From Ralstonia sp. A12 (GTDB lineage Bacteria > Pseudomonadota > Gammaproteobacteria > Burkholderiales > Burkholderiaceae), in NCBI RefSeq assembly GCF_000801955.1, contig NZ_JSZO01000011.1, positions 124,001 through 188,000 of the forward strand: a stretch of DNA of 64,000 nt, written 5' to 3'. The notes under the pieces are model-generated. The model was not told the origin of the DNA, ran no database searches, and worked only from the letters and a program-made list of their open reading frames with translations. Within the stretch, counting starts at the first letter, position 1. Every line of letters begins with the position of its first letter. Shown here piece after piece: positions 53,645-60,232 of this stretch. The translations under genes were made by a program, and so were the position numbers.

Positions 53645-53935
53645 CGGGCGGCGAGGGGCTGTTCCCCTATGTGACGTGCGCACGTTGGCCCGAGCGGGGG
53701 GCCAGATGCACGAAGGACGCCGCCGCAAAGGGTCCTTCCCTTTGCAAGGCGTTCCGACAAAGCAGATGGCCCCCGCTCGGGCCAACCCGGAGGGCAAGGT
53801 GCAGATGGGCCGCATGGCGTCGTTGCGGCCGGCTTGCTTGGAATGACCAAGCGGCGCCGTCCACGCCTAGCCCTGCGACCCATCTGCACCTTGCGTGCGC
53901 ACGTTACATAGGGGAACAGCCCCTTTAGCCGCCCG
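53645..53935. repeat. Nested inverted-repeat element with three-way-junction fold
   Basis: This 291-base element fills the gap between the SPFH and DUF4178 genes. Outer arms A (53645-53684) and A' (53894-53935) are near-complementary over about 40 bases. Inside, arm B (53684-53704) pairs with B' (53767-53786), and C (53794-53813) pairs with C' (53875-53894). The B loop holds hairpin GCAAAGGG-TCCTT-CCCTTTGC (53725-53745). The C loop holds GCTTGG-AATGA-CCAAGC (53836-53852). A abuts B and C' abuts A', so the whole folds as a closed three-way junction. No target-site duplication is seen. It could be a structured RNA or a MITE-like repeat. Confidence 0.85.
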
Positions 53936-53963
53936 TTTTGCTGTGCAATCGAACGACCCGACC

Positions 53964-55415
53964 ATGTTTCATGCCAACTGCCCGGCGTGTGGCGCGCCGG
54001 TGGAACTGAAGTCCGCCGCTGCCGTAATGACGGTGTGCAGCTTCTGCAAGAGCACGCTGCTGCGCGACGGCGAGACGCTGTCCGACATCGGCAAGATGTC
54101 TGCCGTGCTGGAAGACTACGCGCGCGTGCAGATCGGCACCACCGGGCGCTACAAGAACAAAGCCTTCACCGTGGTCGGCCGCATCCAGTTGCGCTACGAC
54201 GCGGGCTTCTGGAACGAGTGGTACGTGCTGTTTGACGACAGCACCGACGGTTGGCTGGCCGAGGCTTCGGGCCAGGTCACCATGACCTTCTCGCGTGGCG
54301 TGCCGCGCAACGCCGTGGCGTTCGAGACGCTGCGCCCCGGCCAGCTTTACGATGCCGAGGGCAAGCAGTTCACGCTGTCCGACGTGCGTGAGGCCGATTG
54401 CACCGGCGGGCAAGGTGAATTGCCCTTTCGCGTGGGCGAGGGGTGGCACGCACGTGTGGCCGATGGCCGCCGCGAAGACGCCTTCATCACGCTCGACTAC
54501 TCCGACGGCACCGCGCCCACGCTCTATTTGGGCGAGGCCACCACGCTCGAAGCGCTCAAGTGTCAGCTCCTGCGCACGGACGCCGAGATCAAGGAAACCG
54601 CCGGCCGCGTCCCCCGCAAGCTCACCAACCTCGACTGCCCGCAATGCGGCACGTCGATTCCGTTCAGCCCCGGCGTGACGGGGCACGTGCTGTGCCCAGG
54701 CTGCGGCGCGGCCATTGATGCGGCCACGCCGCGCGGCGAGATCATCGCCCGCGCACGGTCCGTCCCGCAGGTCGTTACCACGCTGGAACTGGGCGACAAG
54801 GCACTGATTGACGGCCAGCAATGGCAGGTGATCGGCGTGATGCGCCGCACGGTGGTCGACGGCGGCGGCGAGTGGTTCGAATATCTGCTGTACACCCCCA
54901 AGCGCGGCTTTACGTGGATGGTGGAAACCGATGACGGCTGGTTCCGCGCCAACGTGCTCGACCGCTGGCCCACGCAGACCGACGGCCGCAAGGCCACGCT
55001 CGGCAACACGCAGTACACCCGCGACGAGGATTACACCTCCCGCGTGACCTACGCTGCCGGCGCTTTCAACTGGCGTGTGCAGGCGGGTGACCAGACGCGC
55101 GTTGTTGAATACACGGCGGGTCAGGAAAGCCTTGCCGCAGAGAGCGATGCACATGAGCTGAGCTGGTCCAAGAGCACACCCGTCAGTACCGCGCAGATCA
55201 AGGCGTGGTTCGGCAAGGTGGTGCCGGAACCGGTGGCGCAGACATCAGCCTCGGGCTACATGACCGTGGCGGTGGTGTCCTGCGTGCTGCTCGGCCTGCT
55301 GAATCTGGTGCCGTTCTTCATGGCGCCGGGTTCCGTGTTCGGGATCACGTTCTTTGCGGCGCTGATGCTGATCGTGCCGGCATGGCTGGTCGCCAAGGTT
55401 GGGGGTGGGGAATGA
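53964..55415 (+). CDS. DUF4178 zinc-ribbon membrane protein
   Basis: A 483-residue protein. An N-terminal zinc ribbon (CPAC at 6-9, CSFC at 25-28) leads into a first DUF4178-like beta domain (about residues 60-185; VQIGTTGRYKNKAFTVVGRIQLRY, WNEWYVLFDD). A second zinc ribbon (CPQC at 225-228, CPGC at 244-247) leads to a second copy (LELGDKALIDGQQWQVIGVM, WFEYLLYTP). Two membrane helices close the protein (about residues 428-478). The tandem ribbon-DUF4178 layout is striking. It overlaps the next gene by 4 bases. DUF4178 is uncharacterised but linked by neighbourhood to polyamine and membrane-stress genes. Confidence 0.87.
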   Translation: MFHANCPACGAPVELKSAAAVMTVCSFCKSTLLRDGETLSDIGKMSAVLEDYARVQIGTTGRYKNKAFTVVGRIQLRYDAGFWNEWYVLFDDSTDGWLAEASGQVTMTFSRGVPRNAVAFETLRPGQLYDAEGKQFTLSDVREADCTGGQGELPFRVGEGWHARVADGRREDAFITLDYSDGTAPTLYLGEATTLEALKCQLLRTDAEIKETAGRVPRKLTNLDCPQCGTSIPFSPGVTGHVLCPGCGAAIDAATPRGEIIARARSVPQVVTTLELGDKALIDGQQWQVIGVMRRTVVDGGGEWFEYLLYTPKRGFTWMVETDDGWFRANVLDRWPTQTDGRKATLGNTQYTRDEDYTSRVTYAAGAFNWRVQAGDQTRVVEYTAGQESLAAESDAHELSWSKSTPVSTAQIKAWFGKVVPEPVAQTSASGYMTVAVVSCVLLGLLNLVPFFMAPGSVFGITFFAALMLIVPAWLVAKVGGGE

Positions 55416-55597
55416 AAGGCTGGTTCGTGTTGTACGCCGTGTGTGTGGTGATCGGCGCAACGGTCATGGACTGGAAAGCCGGCTTTGCCGCGCCGCGCAC
55501 GCCGTCGTATGGCAGCGGCACCAGCGGGTCGTCCTACTGGGGTGGTTCGTCGAGCGGAAGCGGTTACGGCGGCGGCTTCAGCGGGGGCCACAAGTGA
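55412..55597 (+). CDS. Small membrane or exported protein with Ser/Gly/Tyr-rich tail
   Basis: A 61-residue protein: one hydrophobic segment (residues 4-18, GWFVLYAVCVVIGAT) followed by a low-complexity tail of SGS/GGS/GYGG units ending GGHK. It overlaps the DUF4178 gene (ATGA) and the SpeH gene (GTGA), so it is translated as part of the chain, which argues that it is real. Glycine-serine tails of this kind occur in small proteins of membrane-stress loci. I recognise no named family. Confidence 0.78.
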   Translation: MKGWFVLYAVCVVIGATVMDWKAGFAAPRTPSYGSGTSGSSYWGGSSSGSGYGGGFSGGHK

Positions 55598-56013
55598 CGC
55601 GCACAGACGCGACACCGCACGCCGAGGCGATCTCCGTTGCCGTGGGCGAGCATCTGCTGCTCGACCTGTATGGTGTGGCACCTGCACTGCTGCGCGATGC
55701 TCAAGCACTGGAGGCCGCGCTGCGCGAGGCTGCCGCGGCGCTGGGCGCCACCATTCTCCATGCGCATCTGCATCGCTTCGATTCGCTGCGTGTGGGCGCA
55801 CCTGCCGGTGAGCAGGGCGGTGTGACCGGCGTGTTGCTGCTGGCGGAGTCCCACCTGTCGATCCACACCTGGCCCGAGCACGGGTTCGCCGCCATCGATG
55901 CCTTCATGTGCGGCACCGGCACAACGCACGGCGCACGCGCCGTGTTTGAACGCGCACTGGCACCAGAGCGTGTCGACGTGCGCGTTGCGCAGCGCGGTTG
56001 CGCACCAGCGTAA
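55594..56013 (+). CDS. speH: S-adenosylmethionine decarboxylase proenzyme (SpeH type)
   Basis: A 139-residue prokaryotic AdoMet decarboxylase that supplies decarboxylated AdoMet for aminopropyl transfer. The self-cleavage site is Glu85-Ser86 in LAESHLSIHTWPE, where Ser86 becomes the pyruvoyl group. The catalytic proton donor is Cys106 in DAFMCG. The N-terminus VGEHLLLDLYGV is canonical. The start is GTG at 55594, overlapping the previous stop (GTGA). It is the last gene of the DUF350 unit. A matching aminopropyltransferase-like gene lies at 45510 on the opposite strand. Confidence 0.95.
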   Translation: MTRTDATPHAEAISVAVGEHLLLDLYGVAPALLRDAQALEAALREAAAALGATILHAHLHRFDSLRVGAPAGEQGGVTGVLLLAESHLSIHTWPEHGFAAIDAFMCGTGTTHGARAVFERALAPERVDVRVAQRGCAPA

Positions 56014-56227
56014 AGCATTCGGTTTAATCCAATATCGTTTTCGGCCCACGCTTCAAGCAGGCAGTGGGCTTGGCCACCGCCGCCCGTATGCGGCGCTCGG
56101 CAATGCCTCGTTGTGAGTGAAATACGCACGCATTGACGTGCCATGATGGACGTTCGGATTGCATCCCGGTGGTCGATGCAAGGCCATCGGCGTTTGGTTC
56201 TCCCATCACCAACCCGACGAGGCCTTC

Positions 56228-57517
56228 ATGACCACGCTGCCTACGCGCGTCTCTTCTGCGCTACTCCCCACACCTTCTCCCGCCGCGCCGGCATTGCCGG
56301 ACTGGATTGCCGTTCGCATGCGGCGTCACTATGACGATCGCATGGGCAAGCTTTGGGGCGGAGACCACCTGCTCCACGGCCGTACGCCAGGGCCCGATGC
56401 CCTGTTCCTGAACAGCAACGACTACCTGTGCCTGCTCGGCGAGCGGGAACTGGTACGTGCCCAGGCGCGCGCACTGCTCGGGCACGAGCGTGAGTTGCTC
56501 ATGTCCGCGGTGTTCCAGCACGGCGATACCCCGCAGAGCCGGCTGGAAGCCCGGCTGGCTGCCATGATGCGCGCCGAGGCTGGCCTGATCGCCCAGTCCG
56601 GCTGGGCTGCGAATGTGGGGTTGATCCAGTGCATCGCAGGGCCGGGGGTGCCGGTCTATATCGACATGACCGCGCATGCCTCGCTGTGGGAAGGTATCAC
56701 CGCGGCTGGCGCGCAACCGGTGCCGTTTCGCCATAACGACGTCGACCATTTGAGCCGGCAACTGGAGCGCACCGGGCCCGGCATCATCGTCGTGGATTCC
56801 GTCTATAGCACGACCGGCAGCGTGGCACCGTTGACGGCGCTGGTGGCGGCGGCGGAGGCCAGCGGCTCGGGCATCGTCGTAGATGAATCCCACTCGCTGG
56901 GCACGCACGGGCCGGGCGGGGCTGGCCTGGTGGTGCAGCTCGGGTTGGAGCGCCGTGTGCACTTCCGCACGGCATCGCTGGCCAAGACATTTGCCGGCCG
57001 TGCGGGGTTCGTCGCCTGCAGTGGCCTGTTCAAGGACTTCTTTGCCGTGGAGGCCCGCCCGGCCATCTTCAGTTCGGGGCTGCTGCGGCATGAGCTGGCT
57101 TGGTTCGAGGCCGCGACGGATTTCATTGGCGCGGCAGATGCTCGGCGCGAGAGTCTGCACGCCATCACCCGTTCTGTGCGCGCAGGTATCGCCGCGCTGG
57201 GCTACAACATCAGTGACGGCACCGAGCAGATCATCGGGCTGGAGGCCGGGTCGGAGCCGCAGGTCAAGGTGCTGCGCGACGCATTGCAGGCCCAGGGCAT
57301 CTTCGGTGCGGTATTCTGTGCGCCGGCTACGCCCAGAAACCGGGCGTTGGTGCGCCTCACGCTGCATGCCAAGCTCACGCCCGCAGAGATCGGTCGGCTG
57401 CTTGGTGTCCTGGCGGAGATTCGTGATCGGGTGGGGCTGGACGACTGGCCGTCCACGCGCCGGATGCGAAGACCTGCAGCCGCCGTTCAACTCAATGCAT
57501 GTTTGGCGAACGCATGA
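56228..57517 (+). CDS. cqsA: Alpha-hydroxyketone autoinducer synthase (CqsA/LqsA/JqsA-like)
   Basis: A 429-residue PLP-dependent alpha-oxoamine-synthase-family enzyme very close to Vibrio CqsA. Shared landmarks are LNSNDYLCL (61-69), AQSGWAANVGLIQ (122-134), GPGIIVVDSVYSTTGSVAPL, VDESHSLGTHGPGGAGL and TASLAKTFAGRAG with the PLP lysine Lys253. CqsA joins an acyl-CoA to S-adenosylmethionine to make CAI-1-type signals. The protein is about 40 residues longer than Vibrio CqsA, with extra residues at both ends. It overlaps the sensor kinase gene by 4 bases. The upstream gene, speH, also consumes S-adenosylmethionine. Confidence 0.93.
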   Translation: MTTLPTRVSSALLPTPSPAAPALPDWIAVRMRRHYDDRMGKLWGGDHLLHGRTPGPDALFLNSNDYLCLLGERELVRAQARALLGHERELLMSAVFQHGDTPQSRLEARLAAMMRAEAGLIAQSGWAANVGLIQCIAGPGVPVYIDMTAHASLWEGITAAGAQPVPFRHNDVDHLSRQLERTGPGIIVVDSVYSTTGSVAPLTALVAAAEASGSGIVVDESHSLGTHGPGGAGLVVQLGLERRVHFRTASLAKTFAGRAGFVACSGLFKDFFAVEARPAIFSSGLLRHELAWFEAATDFIGAADARRESLHAITRSVRAGIAALGYNISDGTEQIIGLEAGSEPQVKVLRDALQAQGIFGAVFCAPATPRNRALVRLTLHAKLTPAEIGRLLGVLAEIRDRVGLDDWPSTRRMRRPAAAVQLNACLANA

Positions 57518-58812
57518 CGAACACAGTGGGTGGAGTCCCCGCAGACAATTCGGGTCGCTGGCCGGCCCGCGTCTGGCAATACCTCGCTACCTTCCTGACG
57601 AGCGCGGCGCTACTCGACGAAGAGAGCGCCGCGCGGCTGCGCCGCATCCGTTTCGTTGGGGCGCTGGGTGTGATCGGCCACCCGCTGTACTTCGTGATCT
57701 GGTCGCATGTTTTTCCACAGCCTTACGAGAACATCTGGCTGCGCGCCGTGTGCACGCTGCTGTTCATTCCGCTGCTGTTTGCCAACCGACTGTCGCAATA
57801 CAAGTGGCTGCCGGCCTATGCCTTGTTTGCCATCACGGCCGGGCTGCCCTTTGCCTTCATCTTTTTCTATCTCGAGAACGCCGGGACGATGGTGTGGGCG
57901 GAGTCGGTGGTCATTGCGGTCGTCATCCTGTTCCACTTCAGCACGGCGTTTGCGCTGATCTCGCTCATCAGCGGGGCGGTTGCTGCGACGGCGCTGTTCT
58001 TGCTGGCCGGCAACGCGGTGGCGGCGTTCCCGTGGCACGCGCTGCTGGAGCAGGTGCCCGTGGTGGCGTTTGTGATGGCCGTGCTGGTCGTCATCAAGCT
58101 GGATCGCCAGATCCTGGCGGAGCAGAAACAGCGCGGCGTGGCGCTGGCGCTGGGCACCGTGGCCCATGAGCTGCGCACGCCGCTGGCCAGCGTGGCCCTG
58201 ACGGCGCGCGGCATTCAGGACCGCTTGCCCAAGCTGGTGTCGCCCGATCATCCAGACCTGCCGGCGGTGCAGCATGCGGTCGAGCGCATGCGCACGGACG
58301 TCATGCGCGCCAACAACAGCATCGAGCTGCTGGTCGCCAATTCAAAAGACCCGCAGACCGTCAGCATCAACTGGTTTGACCCGCATGAGGCAATCTGCTC
58401 GGCCATCGCAGCCTTTCCGTTTGAACCCGGCACGCGCGAACTGATTTCCATCGCGCCGAGTATCGGCGTGCGGGTGTTGGGCAACGCCAGCCTGTTCGAA
58501 CACATCATCACCAACCTGACCAAGAACGCGCTGGAGGCCATCCAGCGCGTGGGCAAGGGTGATCTGCACATCAGCTACGAGCGGTCGTCGCGTGCTGTGG
58601 AGATCGTGGTGCGCGACACGGGCTCGGGCATCTCGTCGACCGTGCTCAAGCGGATGTTTCAGCCCTTCTTCTCGTACCCGGCGCATCGCGGCACGGGCAT
58701 TGGGCTGATGTTCTGCCGCAAGGTCCTGCGCGGTTGGGGTGCGAGCATCTCGTGCCGGTCGGTCGAGCACGAGTACACCGAATTCCGCCTCCGCTTCCCG
58801 AACCCGCGCTGA
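57514..58812 (+). CDS. cqsS: CqsS/LqsS/JqsS-like membrane sensor histidine kinase
   Basis: A 432-residue kinase. The N-terminal sensor has about six helices and the CqsS hallmark GVIGHPLYFVIWSHVFPQPYENIWLR (about residues 52-77). The dimerisation/phosphoacceptor motif VAHELRTPL places His218. The N box is NLTKNALEAI, and the ATP lid boxes are DTGSGISS and GTGIGLMFCRK. Vibrio CqsS carries a C-terminal receiver; this protein ends right after the kinase domain. ATGA overlap with cqsA fixes the start at 57514. No response regulator lies in the window, so its partner is elsewhere. Confidence 0.92.
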   Translation: MTNTVGGVPADNSGRWPARVWQYLATFLTSAALLDEESAARLRRIRFVGALGVIGHPLYFVIWSHVFPQPYENIWLRAVCTLLFIPLLFANRLSQYKWLPAYALFAITAGLPFAFIFFYLENAGTMVWAESVVIAVVILFHFSTAFALISLISGAVAATALFLLAGNAVAAFPWHALLEQVPVVAFVMAVLVVIKLDRQILAEQKQRGVALALGTVAHELRTPLASVALTARGIQDRLPKLVSPDHPDLPAVQHAVERMRTDVMRANNSIELLVANSKDPQTVSINWFDPHEAICSAIAAFPFEPGTRELISIAPSIGVRVLGNASLFEHIITNLTKNALEAIQRVGKGDLHISYERSSRAVEIVVRDTGSGISSTVLKRMFQPFFSYPAHRGTGIGLMFCRKVLRGWGASISCRSVEHEYTEFRLRFPNPR

Positions 58813-58846
58813 TGTTTGCAACGCGGGGCTCGGGGCGGCCTGTGGC

Positions 58847-60232
58847 TTACCGGCCGACCATGTTCTCTGGCCGCACCCACGCGTCGAACTGCTCGGGCGT
58901 CACGTAGCCGAGTGCCAGCGCGGCTTCACGCAGGCTCGTGCCTTCCTTGTGCGCCTTCTTGGCGATCTGCGCAGATTTGTCGTAGCCGATGTGCGGATTG
59001 AGCGCTGTCACCAGCATCAACGAGCGCTGCACCAGCTCGTCAATGCGGGCGCGGTTGGGCTCGATGCCCACGGCGCAGTGGTCGTTGAAGCTGCGCATGC
59101 CGTCGGCCAGCAGGCGCACGCTGTGCAGGAAGTTGTAGGCAATCATCGGGCGGAACACGTTCAACTCGAAGTTGCCTGATGCGCCGCCAATGTTGACCGC
59201 CACGTCGTTGCCGAACACCTGGGCGCACAGCATCGTCACAGCTTCGCTTTGCGTGGGGTTGACCTTGCCCGGCATGATGGACGAGCCGGGCTCGTTCTCG
59301 GGAATGGATATCTCGCCCAGGCCGCTGCGGGGGCCGCTCGCCAGCCAGCGGATGTCGTTGGCGATCTTGGTGAGGCTGGCGGCCAGCGTTTTCAGCGCGC
59401 CGTGCGCATGCACCAGGCCATCGGCCGAGGCCATGGTCTCGAACTTGTTGGGCGAGGTCACGAAGGGCAGGCCGGTCAGATCGGCCAGTTCGGCCGCCAC
59501 TTGTTGCGCATAGCCAGCCGGTGCATTCAGGCCGGTGCCCACTGCCGTGCCGCCCAGTGCCAGCTCACACAGGTGCGGCAGCGCCGCGTTCAGGTGCGTC
59601 TCGTTGTGCTGCAACTGAGCGACATAGCCGGAGAACTCCTGGCCGAGCGTGAGCGGCGTCGCGTCCTGCAGGTGCGTGCGGCCGATCTTGATGATGTCGT
59701 CGAAGTCTGCCGCTTTCTTGGCAAGCGTTTCGCGCAGTGTGCGCAGCGATGGGATCAGGTGCCGCGTGATGGCGGTGACGGCCGCCACGTGCATCGCCGT
59801 CGGGAACACATCGTTGGACGACTGGCTGCGGTTGACGTCGTCGTTCGGGTGCACGAGGCGGCTCTCGCCACGCTCGCCGCCCAGCAGTTCGCTGGCGCGG
59901 TTGGCGAGCACCTCGTTCATGTTCATGTTGCTCTGCGTGCCAGAGCCGGTCTGCCAGACCACCAGCGGAAATTCATTCGGGTGCTTGCCGGCGATGACTT
60001 CATCCGCCGCGCCGATGATGGCGTTGGCCTTCTCGGCCGGCAGCAGGCCCAGGCGATGGTTGACGGCAGCGCTTGCGCGCTTGATGCGGGCCAGTGCGTC
60101 GATCAGCTCGCGTGGCATGCGGTCACCCGCAATGTCGAAGTTCTGCAGCGAGCGCTGCGTCTGCGCGCCCCACAAATGATTGGCGGGGACTTCAATCGGT
60201 CCAAAGGTGTCGCGTTCGGTACGAGTGGTCAT
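58847..60232 (-). CDS. fumC: Fumarate hydratase class II
   Basis: A 461-residue fumarase C, the iron-independent tetrameric enzyme of the citric acid cycle. The signature [15 protein letters not shown] (about residues 317-331) carries the catalytic serine loop. [16 protein letters not shown] and [21 protein letters not shown] are the other two conserved regions, with His188-type catalysis supported by RTHLQDATP. The ATG at 60230-60232 gives the family N-terminus ([12 protein letters not shown]). Convergent with the cqsS-like gene. Confidence 0.96.

What the first reader, a model, noticed from the sequence alone, without database searches (positions are those of the whole stretch)
56228..58812. 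CqsA/CqsS-type quorum-sensing pair with a receiver-less kinase and no local response regulator
The synthase carries essentially every landmark of Vibrio CqsA, including the PLP lysine (Lys253), and the kinase carries the CqsS sensor signature followed by an intact His218 kinase core. The genes overlap by ATGA. Legionella (Lqs) and Janthinobacterium (Jqs) systems normally have a response regulator in the cluster, while Vibrio CqsS has a fused receiver. Here neither is present within the visible 5 kb downstream, where fumC, an exporter and a helicase follow. The phosphorelay partner is therefore unlinked or novel.
Basis: partly seen in the sequence, partly recalled or inferred. Interest (0 to 1): 0.8.

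Follow-up and report, generated by a model that had tools for sequence, protein, structure and literature searches.

The report
Hydroxyketone signalling pair, regulator elsewhere
A Ralstonia bacterium carries an intact gene pair for making and sensing an alpha-hydroxyketone cell-density signal, and the regulator that seemed to be missing is most likely PhcX, a known LqsR-family protein encoded elsewhere in the genome beside a second quorum-sensing system.

Summary
Window 56228-57517 encodes an alpha-hydroxyketone (AHK) synthase (570.8 bits, cut-off 428). Window 57514-58812 encodes a CqsS/LqsS-type kinase overlapping it by ATGA, without a receiver; no receiver match lies in the window. The "missing" regulator is not new: the genome has one LqsR ortholog, PhcX, beside phcBSRQ on another contig. 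That decoupling is published for Cupriavidus and R. insidiosa (PMC10653808, passages and one section). Added here: 78 of 79 synthase-positive genomes of the family sample have an LqsR match; the 32 LqsR-only genomes are all g1 (Ralstonia) or g3 (mostly titled Cupriavidus). In Ralstonia the pair sits between speD and fumC; the 11 genomes without it have a GAF-GGDEF cyclase (9 of 11 shown in that slot), and the same 5/11 split separates two PhcB/PhcS types, possibly one historical event. That CqsS phosphorylates PhcX is inferred; the interface test was inconclusive. Verdict: new member of a known kind (Lqs type, regulator unlinked).

The parts
56228..57517 (+). cqsA/lqsA: PLP-dependent alpha-hydroxyketone autoinducer synthase, 429 aa, PLP lysine K253
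   Evidence: NCBIfam NF005526 570.8 bits vs cut-off 428; PDB 3hqt E 1.1e-101; dN/dS 0.044-0.105 vs four Ralstonia
57514..58812 (+). cqsS/lqsS: membrane sensor histidine kinase, 432 aa, phospho-acceptor H218, no receiver domain; overlaps cqsA by ATGA
   Evidence: HisKA and HATPase_c, no receiver; sensor motif of CqsS/LqsS; dN/dS 0.059-0.142 vs four Ralstonia
57622..58128 (+). sensor region of cqsS (residues 37-205): hydrophobic, with the family motif at residues 57-77 and W128/S131, the likely equivalents of V. cholerae W104/S107
   Evidence: alignment, motif, hydropathy scan, meaning of W104/S107 from PMC3376566 section 4.3; the numbering match is inferred
58129..58809 (+). kinase core of cqsS (residues 206-432): H, N, G1, F and G2 boxes
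   Evidence: motif positions, Pfam
55600..56013 (+). speD, S-adenosylmethionine decarboxylase (start not determined): left border of the slot, not part of the signalling system
   Evidence: TIGR03330 112.9 bits vs cut-off 75.65; PF02675; same left neighbour in other Ralstonia
58847..60232 (-). fumC, class II fumarate hydratase: right border of the slot, not part of the signalling system
   Evidence: TIGR00979 781.1 bits vs cut-off 664.75; same right neighbour in other Ralstonia

Best explanation
This is a Lqs-type AHK quorum-sensing pair whose response regulator has moved away. CqsA/LqsA condenses SAM (or 2-aminobutyrate) with a medium-chain acyl-CoA to give an AHK or its enamine precursor (inferred from the family). 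The signal accumulates and binds the membrane sensor region of CqsS/LqsS (inferred), which switches the H218 kinase between kinase and phosphatase states (inferred). With no receiver on the kinase and none nearby (shown), the phosphoryl group most likely goes straight to the aspartate of the LqsR ortholog PhcX, encoded once in this genome beside phcBSRQ (presence shown, transfer inferred), so the AHK input would join the Phc regulatory network through PhcX.
For: Synthase identity. Receiver-less kinase with the conserved sensor motif. One LqsR-family match at E <= 1e-40 in the genome (345 aa; PDB 6sy9 'Response regulator', E 1.9e-49), upstream of phcB-phcS-phcR-phcQ on the same strand. In relatives the three proteins form one cluster, lqsA -> lqsR <- lqsS: LqsR lies within 5 kb of the synthase in 29 of 29 g21 genomes and 6 of 7 genomes of other genera (the seventh, G326, is split over short contigs), but in 0 of 5 Ralstonia (g1) and 0 of 38 g3 genomes. 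78 of 79 synthase-positive genomes have an LqsR match at E <= 1e-100 (G158's is cut by a contig end); the exception, G397, is a 730-contig assembly with 8% contamination. In the A, S and R trees the Ralstonia and g3 proteins group with the linked relatives G004 and G566, consistent with descent from one cluster. G098 keeps phcBSRQ about 460 bp from cqsS-cqsA, with PhcX 23 kb away; G004 has a linked cluster plus a second LqsR beside phcBSRQ. Pair presence is all or none in Ralstonia: 5 of 5 with the synthase have the kinase, 0 of 11 without. A passage of PMC10653808 says both Lqs and Phc were shown to be functional in C. taiwanensis.
Against: No phosphotransfer or binding datum exists here. The kinase-facing helix of PhcX (alpha 1) is identical in 10 of 10 Ralstonia compared, 6 of them without CqsS, and equals the common form in 16 of 21 g3 genomes without the pair and 35 of 37 with it, so CqsS cannot be its only reason to be conserved. 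The genome has 86 receiver matches, and I did not score the others as partners. Two kinases on contig C59 share the CqsS-type core (39-40% identity), also without a receiver match within about 15 kb. The S-tree group also takes in the f2 genomes G416 and G754, which lie elsewhere in the R tree. The same passage of PMC10653808 says the Lqs system of C. taiwanensis had few influences on growth, motility, biofilm or EPS. The AHK product of this strain is unknown.
Confidence: 0.65

Rival explanations
1. The AHK pair works, but CqsS signals to another regulator: PhcR or PhcQ of the Phc operon, or an unrelated orphan regulator. PhcX serves the Phc system or another kinase.
For: PhcX is present in 16 of 16 Ralstonia, with an unchanged alpha 1 helix in the 6 compared that lack CqsS. 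phcBSRQ lies about 460 bp from cqsS-cqsA in G098. 86 receiver matches exist in the genome.
Against: Of the regulators seen, only PhcX belongs to the family that is clustered with this synthase/kinase pair wherever the cluster is intact. PhcR and PhcQ belong to an operon with its own kinase PhcS.
Confidence: 0.25
2. The pair is a relic: still made, but no longer coupled to any output after its regulator was taken over by the Phc system.
For: The pair is absent from 11 of 16 Ralstonia and patchy in g3 (at least 10 changes on a quick PhcX tree with many unresolved forks; some absences may be assembly gaps). PMC10653808 (passage) reports few Lqs effects in C. taiwanensis.
Against: Both genes are intact with low dN/dS in four comparisons each (0.044-0.142); the sensor region gives 0.053-0.057 and the kinase part 0.068-0.183 in three comparisons. 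Synthase and sensor are kept or lost together.
Confidence: 0.1
3. A Vibrio-like relay: CqsS to a free-standing HPt protein to a LuxO-like regulator.
For: The kinase core is nearest to LuxN among NCBIfam models, though far under its cut-off (105.2 vs 1550 bits). One of 11 HPt matches lies in a short open frame (C4:49668-49907, 181 aa).
Against: The kinase has no receiver to feed an HPt. The other 10 HPt matches lie in open frames of 744 aa or more. LqsR-type regulators accompany the pair instead.
Confidence: 0.03

Closest known systems
Lqs system of Legionella pneumophila (LqsA, LqsS, LqsR)
   Same: AHK synthase family, receiver-less sensor kinase, LqsR-family regulator (PDB 6sy9 matched over residues 3-329 of 345; that 6sy9 is LqsR is recalled)
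   Different: In the window's genome the regulator is not in the cluster but beside phcBSRQ on another contig; synthase and sensor are tandem and overlap by ATGA
lqsA-lqsS with unlinked PhcX/LqsR in Cupriavidus and Ralstonia insidiosa (PMC10653808)
   Same: Same genes, same decoupling, PhcX next to phc genes; this is the kind to which the window belongs
   Different: The parts read name only R. insidiosa among Ralstonia; here R. soli and Ralstonia sp. ASV6 also carry the synthase and the kinase. The speD-fumC slot, its alternative content and the PhcBS split were not in the parts I read
Jqs system of Janthinobacterium HH01 (PMC3566124, passages)
   Same: Synthase and neighbouring sensor kinase; the HH01 synthase is reported closest to that of Cupriavidus necator
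   Different: jqsR flanks jqsS in the cluster
Vibrio CqsA/CqsS
   Same: Synthase family and the sensor motif
   Different: CqsS of the Vibrio-like loci is 681-729 aa, with a fused receiver in the one scanned, and V. cholerae CqsS relays through LuxU to LuxO (PMC3376566, passages)

Membership tests
AHK (CAI-1/LAI-1) autoinducer synthases, NF005526 | Score over the curated cut-off | tested here: met
   570.8 vs 428 bits
AHK (CAI-1/LAI-1) autoinducer synthases, NF005526 | PLP lysine equivalent to CqsA K236 | tested here: met
   SLAKTF lysine aligned with V. cholerae CqsA, residue 253; K236 from PMC3376566 section 4.2
AHK (CAI-1/LAI-1) autoinducer synthases, NF005526 | Makes an alpha-hydroxyketone | not testable with these tools
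   Needs culture extracts and LC-MS
[quoted passage not shown]
   Motif at residues 57-77; in 40 of 46 CqsS/LqsS rows, four more with one change, 0 of 4 other kinases of the genome
CqsS/LqsS sensor kinases | Six transmembrane helices | tested here: inconclusive
   A crude hydropathy scan gives six partly overlapping peaks between residues 72 and 202 and none over residues 57-71; no structure prediction was run
CqsS/LqsS sensor kinases | HisKA and HATPase_c with intact boxes | tested here: met
   HisKA 27 vs cut-off 26.9 bits
Vibrio Cqs type | Receiver domain fused to CqsS | tested here: not met
   Absent in P0002; present in the one Vibrio-like kinase scanned
Lqs/Jqs type | Receiver-less kinase plus an LqsR-family regulator in the genome | tested here: met
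   One LqsR match in G000, E 3.4e-154, positions 1-334 of 335
Lqs/Jqs type | LqsR gene in the same cluster | tested here: not met
   On contig C21, the pair on C3
PhcX (Ralstonia LqsR ortholog) | LqsR-family protein beside phcBSRQ | tested here: met
   Gene order in L082; same order X-B-S-R-Q in 9 of 9 other Ralstonia phc loci; the phc names rest on PMC10653808 and on gene order, not on a named reference sequence
PhcX (Ralstonia LqsR ortholog) | Phosphorylated by CqsS | not testable with these tools
   The sequence proxy (alpha 1 helix in genomes with and without CqsS) was inconclusive

The most novel reading that the evidence does not exclude
In Ralstonia, quorum sensing exists in two alternative two-locus states. 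State I has the AHK pair in the speD-fumC slot and PhcB/PhcS of type I; state II has a GAF-GGDEF diguanylate cyclase in the same slot and PhcB/PhcS of type II. Both share PhcX, PhcR and PhcQ nearly unchanged. On this reading PhcX, once the AHK regulator, became the fixed hub, and the inputs (signal synthase, receptor, and possibly c-di-GMP) are swapped as a package.
Probability: 0.2. Interest if true: 0.65.

Novelty: new member of a known kind. Interest (0 to 1): 0.4.

Why it matters
It turns a puzzling orphan pair into a testable wiring: AHK signalling and the Phc ester signalling of Ralstonia may meet at one LqsR-family regulator, whose input is unknown in species that lost the AHK pair. Comparing species with and without the pair would show what PhcX answers to.

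Tried and rejected
Rejected: generic BioF/KBL/SPT enzyme (NF005526 is over its cut-off; bioF and the other models listed are below theirs). Rejected: hybrid kinase cut short by a frameshift. The ORF ends after the G2 box, the fumC gene ends 34 bp further on the other strand, and no receiver match lies in the window. Rejected: recent horizontal gain. In the A and S trees the five Ralstonia are sister to the main group of 12 g3 rows (17-row group 100/100 in both).

Inconclusive: whether PhcX lost its kinase-facing residues where CqsS is gone. Mean entropy of alpha 1 was 0.028 in 37 g3 genomes with the pair and 0.174 in 21 without (rest of receiver 0.237 vs 0.217; C-terminal part 0.287 vs 0.315), but this comes from one clade of four genomes plus G165. 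The other 16 of 21 are unchanged, and 2 of the 37 with the pair also differ; 10 of 10 Ralstonia are identical there. Some 'without' genomes are incomplete (G393 78%, G389 86%). Inconclusive: which of the two LqsR copies of G004 is closer to PhcX (support 88/32). Lead not verified: the 7TM kinase matched in 16 of 16 Ralstonia resembles the description of Shk (RSp0220, seven TM; PMC12993560, passages). I could not compare sequences, and that paper's pull-down lists PhcR, VsrC, RSc0291 and RSc0040, not PhcX, which speaks against it as PhcX's kinase if they are the same. No structure prediction was run. The Fisher test (78/1/32/287) ignores shared ancestry and is not used as a probability.

Rows dropped: the A, S and R trees hold 46, 46 and 41 rows chosen by hand from the loci fetched by then; further g3, g21 and Vibrio-like loci were left out. 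Sensor alignment: 22 of 50 rows were printed, all 50 were tested for the motif. Labels: g1 and g3 are the tool's genera; records matching g1 genomes are titled Ralstonia, and those matching g3 mostly Cupriavidus, but one (G107) is titled Ralstonia sp. 25mfcol4.1.

Conflict told: the rpoB-region tree makes the 11 pair-less Ralstonia one clade (94/95), but the fumC-mfs tree puts G087 (R. soli, with the pair) among them with strong support (99/98). One or two switches are therefore possible, and the 5/11 correlation may be a single historical event.

Full report
What is there. The window lies in a 6.1 Mb genome (G000, contig C3:124001-188000). cqsA (56228-57517) is an AHK synthase by NCBIfam and by its nearest solved structure, the CAI-1 synthase. 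cqsS (57514-58812) overlaps it by ATGA and has HisKA and HATPase_c but no receiver match. Both evolve under purifying selection. In the family sample 79 of 398 genomes carry this synthase; in the phylum sample 16 of 398. The system is uncommon but far from unique.

Type. In the phylum sample the six Vibrio-like loci have kinases of 681-729 aa and no LqsR match in the stretch fetched; the one scanned carries a receiver. The six loci from the other families outside the window's family have shorter kinases (431-470 aa) with an LqsR-family gene in the cluster. The window's kinase (432 aa) is of the second type. It keeps W128 and S131, which by alignment spacing correspond to V. cholerae W104/S107, said to set head-group preference (PMC3376566 section 4.3, read in full); this mapping is inferred.

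Where is the regulator? LqsR proteins from linked clusters, searched against 19 stretches of the own genome chosen around receiver matches, found one ortholog on C21 (52.6% identical to the LqsR of G004); a profile search of the whole genome gave the same single place at E <= 1e-40. It lies upstream of phcB, phcS, phcR and phcQ on the same strand and matches PDB 6sy9 over residues 3-329 of 345 (the listing says 'Response regulator', that it is Legionella LqsR is recalled). It is PhcX by position. PMC10653808 (passages; section 17) reports PhcX as the LqsR ortholog, its separation from lqsA/lqsS in Cupriavidus and R. insidiosa, and loss of lqsA in other Ralstonia. Literature searches.

Is the link real? 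In the family sample an LqsR match at E <= 1e-100 occurs in 110 of 398 genomes: 78 of the 79 with the synthase and 32 without. All 32 are g1 (11) or g3 (21), the two genera where LqsR has left the cluster. In the other genera 35 of 36 synthase-positive genomes have LqsR within 5 kb; the exception, G326, is split over short contigs. So LqsR follows the pair, and where it has moved it persists without it. The gene trees of A, S and R agree on G004 and G566 as the closest linked relatives, with long branches flagged by the program; the S-tree group also takes in G416 and G754. Intermediate arrangements exist: G098 with phcBSRQ next to cqsS-cqsA, G004 with two LqsR genes, and G290 and G350 with the pair convergent and no LqsR between. 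These are facts about gene order; that CqsS phosphorylates PhcX is an inference from them.

Tests that did not help. PhcX's alpha 1 helix is unchanged in Ralstonia with or without CqsS (10 rows) and mostly unchanged in g3. PhcX therefore probably has another partner or role at that surface. Candidates are PhcS/PhcR and a 7TM kinase matched in 16 of 16 Ralstonia, whose core is the nearest to CqsS in the genome (39-40%); published pull-downs for a 7TM kinase called Shk do not list PhcX (PMC12993560, passages), and I could not show that the two are the same.

The slot. In Ralstonia with the pair it sits between speD and fumC (own, G087, G129, G137; in G158 next to speD and a fumC piece at a contig end). 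The 11 genomes without it have a GAF-GGDEF diguanylate cyclase gene (11 of 11; 0 of 5 with the pair, E <= 1e-60; domains of the G067 copy). It was shown contiguous with both speD and fumC in 9 of 11; in G105 only DGC-fumC was matched, in G144 the contigs are broken, and in G151 (one of the nine) the gene is split over two frames. The same 5/11 split separates PhcB and PhcS: 92-97% and 89-97% identity to the window genome in the four others with the pair, 73-74% and 71-74% in the 11 without, while PhcX, PhcR and PhcQ are 88-98% in all that could be scored (trees). Within the plant-wilt complex, phcB and phcS are reported under balancing selection (PMC6580516, passages), so the PhcBS types may be older polymorphisms and one genome per species may mislead. 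The rpoB-region tree supports one switch; the fumC-mfs tree conflicts with it. In the listings (open-licence PubMed Central only) I saw no title on the slot or this pairing, and the passages of PMC10073495, a genus comparison, do not mention it.

Judgement. Observation confirmed; mechanism most likely AHK synthase to CqsS to unlinked PhcX. It is a new member of a known kind.

Noticed in passing
window 56014-58846 compared with L183-L191 and L229-L240: The speD-fumC slot holds cqsA-cqsS in the Ralstonia genomes with the pair, whereas the other 11 have a GAF-GGDEF diguanylate cyclase (9 of 11 shown contiguous in the slot) that was not found in the 5.
   Followed up: partly
L082 10760-13498 (G000:C21) compared with L113-L127 and L223-L228: PhcB and PhcS fall into two sharply separate types in Ralstonia that match presence or absence of the AHK pair (5 of 5 vs 11 of 11), while PhcX, PhcR and PhcQ do not split that way.
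   Followed up: partly
L107 5690-10231 (G000:C59): Two 7TM histidine kinases (PF16927) flank a small thioesterase-like gene (4HBT_2), with a methyltransferase gene upstream and no receiver match near; it could be another fatty-acid-derived signalling locus. A kinase of this type is matched in 16 of 16 Ralstonia.
   Followed up: partly
L110 and L111 (G098, g3): phcBSRQ and cqsS-cqsA are convergent neighbours about 460 bp apart, with PhcX 23 kb away: all three modules near each other.
   Followed up: no
L069 and L109 (G004): One genome has both an lqsA-lqsR-lqsS cluster and a second LqsR gene beside phcBSRQ.
   Followed up: no
G290:C2:822404-823585 (L078): A second synthase copy with one TGA inside the match and no kinase match in the 17 kb fetched: possibly a decayed duplicate.
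   Followed up: no
window 53895-56013: A DUF4178 protein gene precedes speD; this pair of neighbours is also seen in 9 of the 11 pair-less Ralstonia.
   Followed up: no
window 56166-56190: A 9-pair inverted repeat ends 37 bp before the cqsA start; no consensus sigma-70 promoter was found in 55900-58950, and terminator-like sites there were 5 against 2.1 expected.
   Followed up: no
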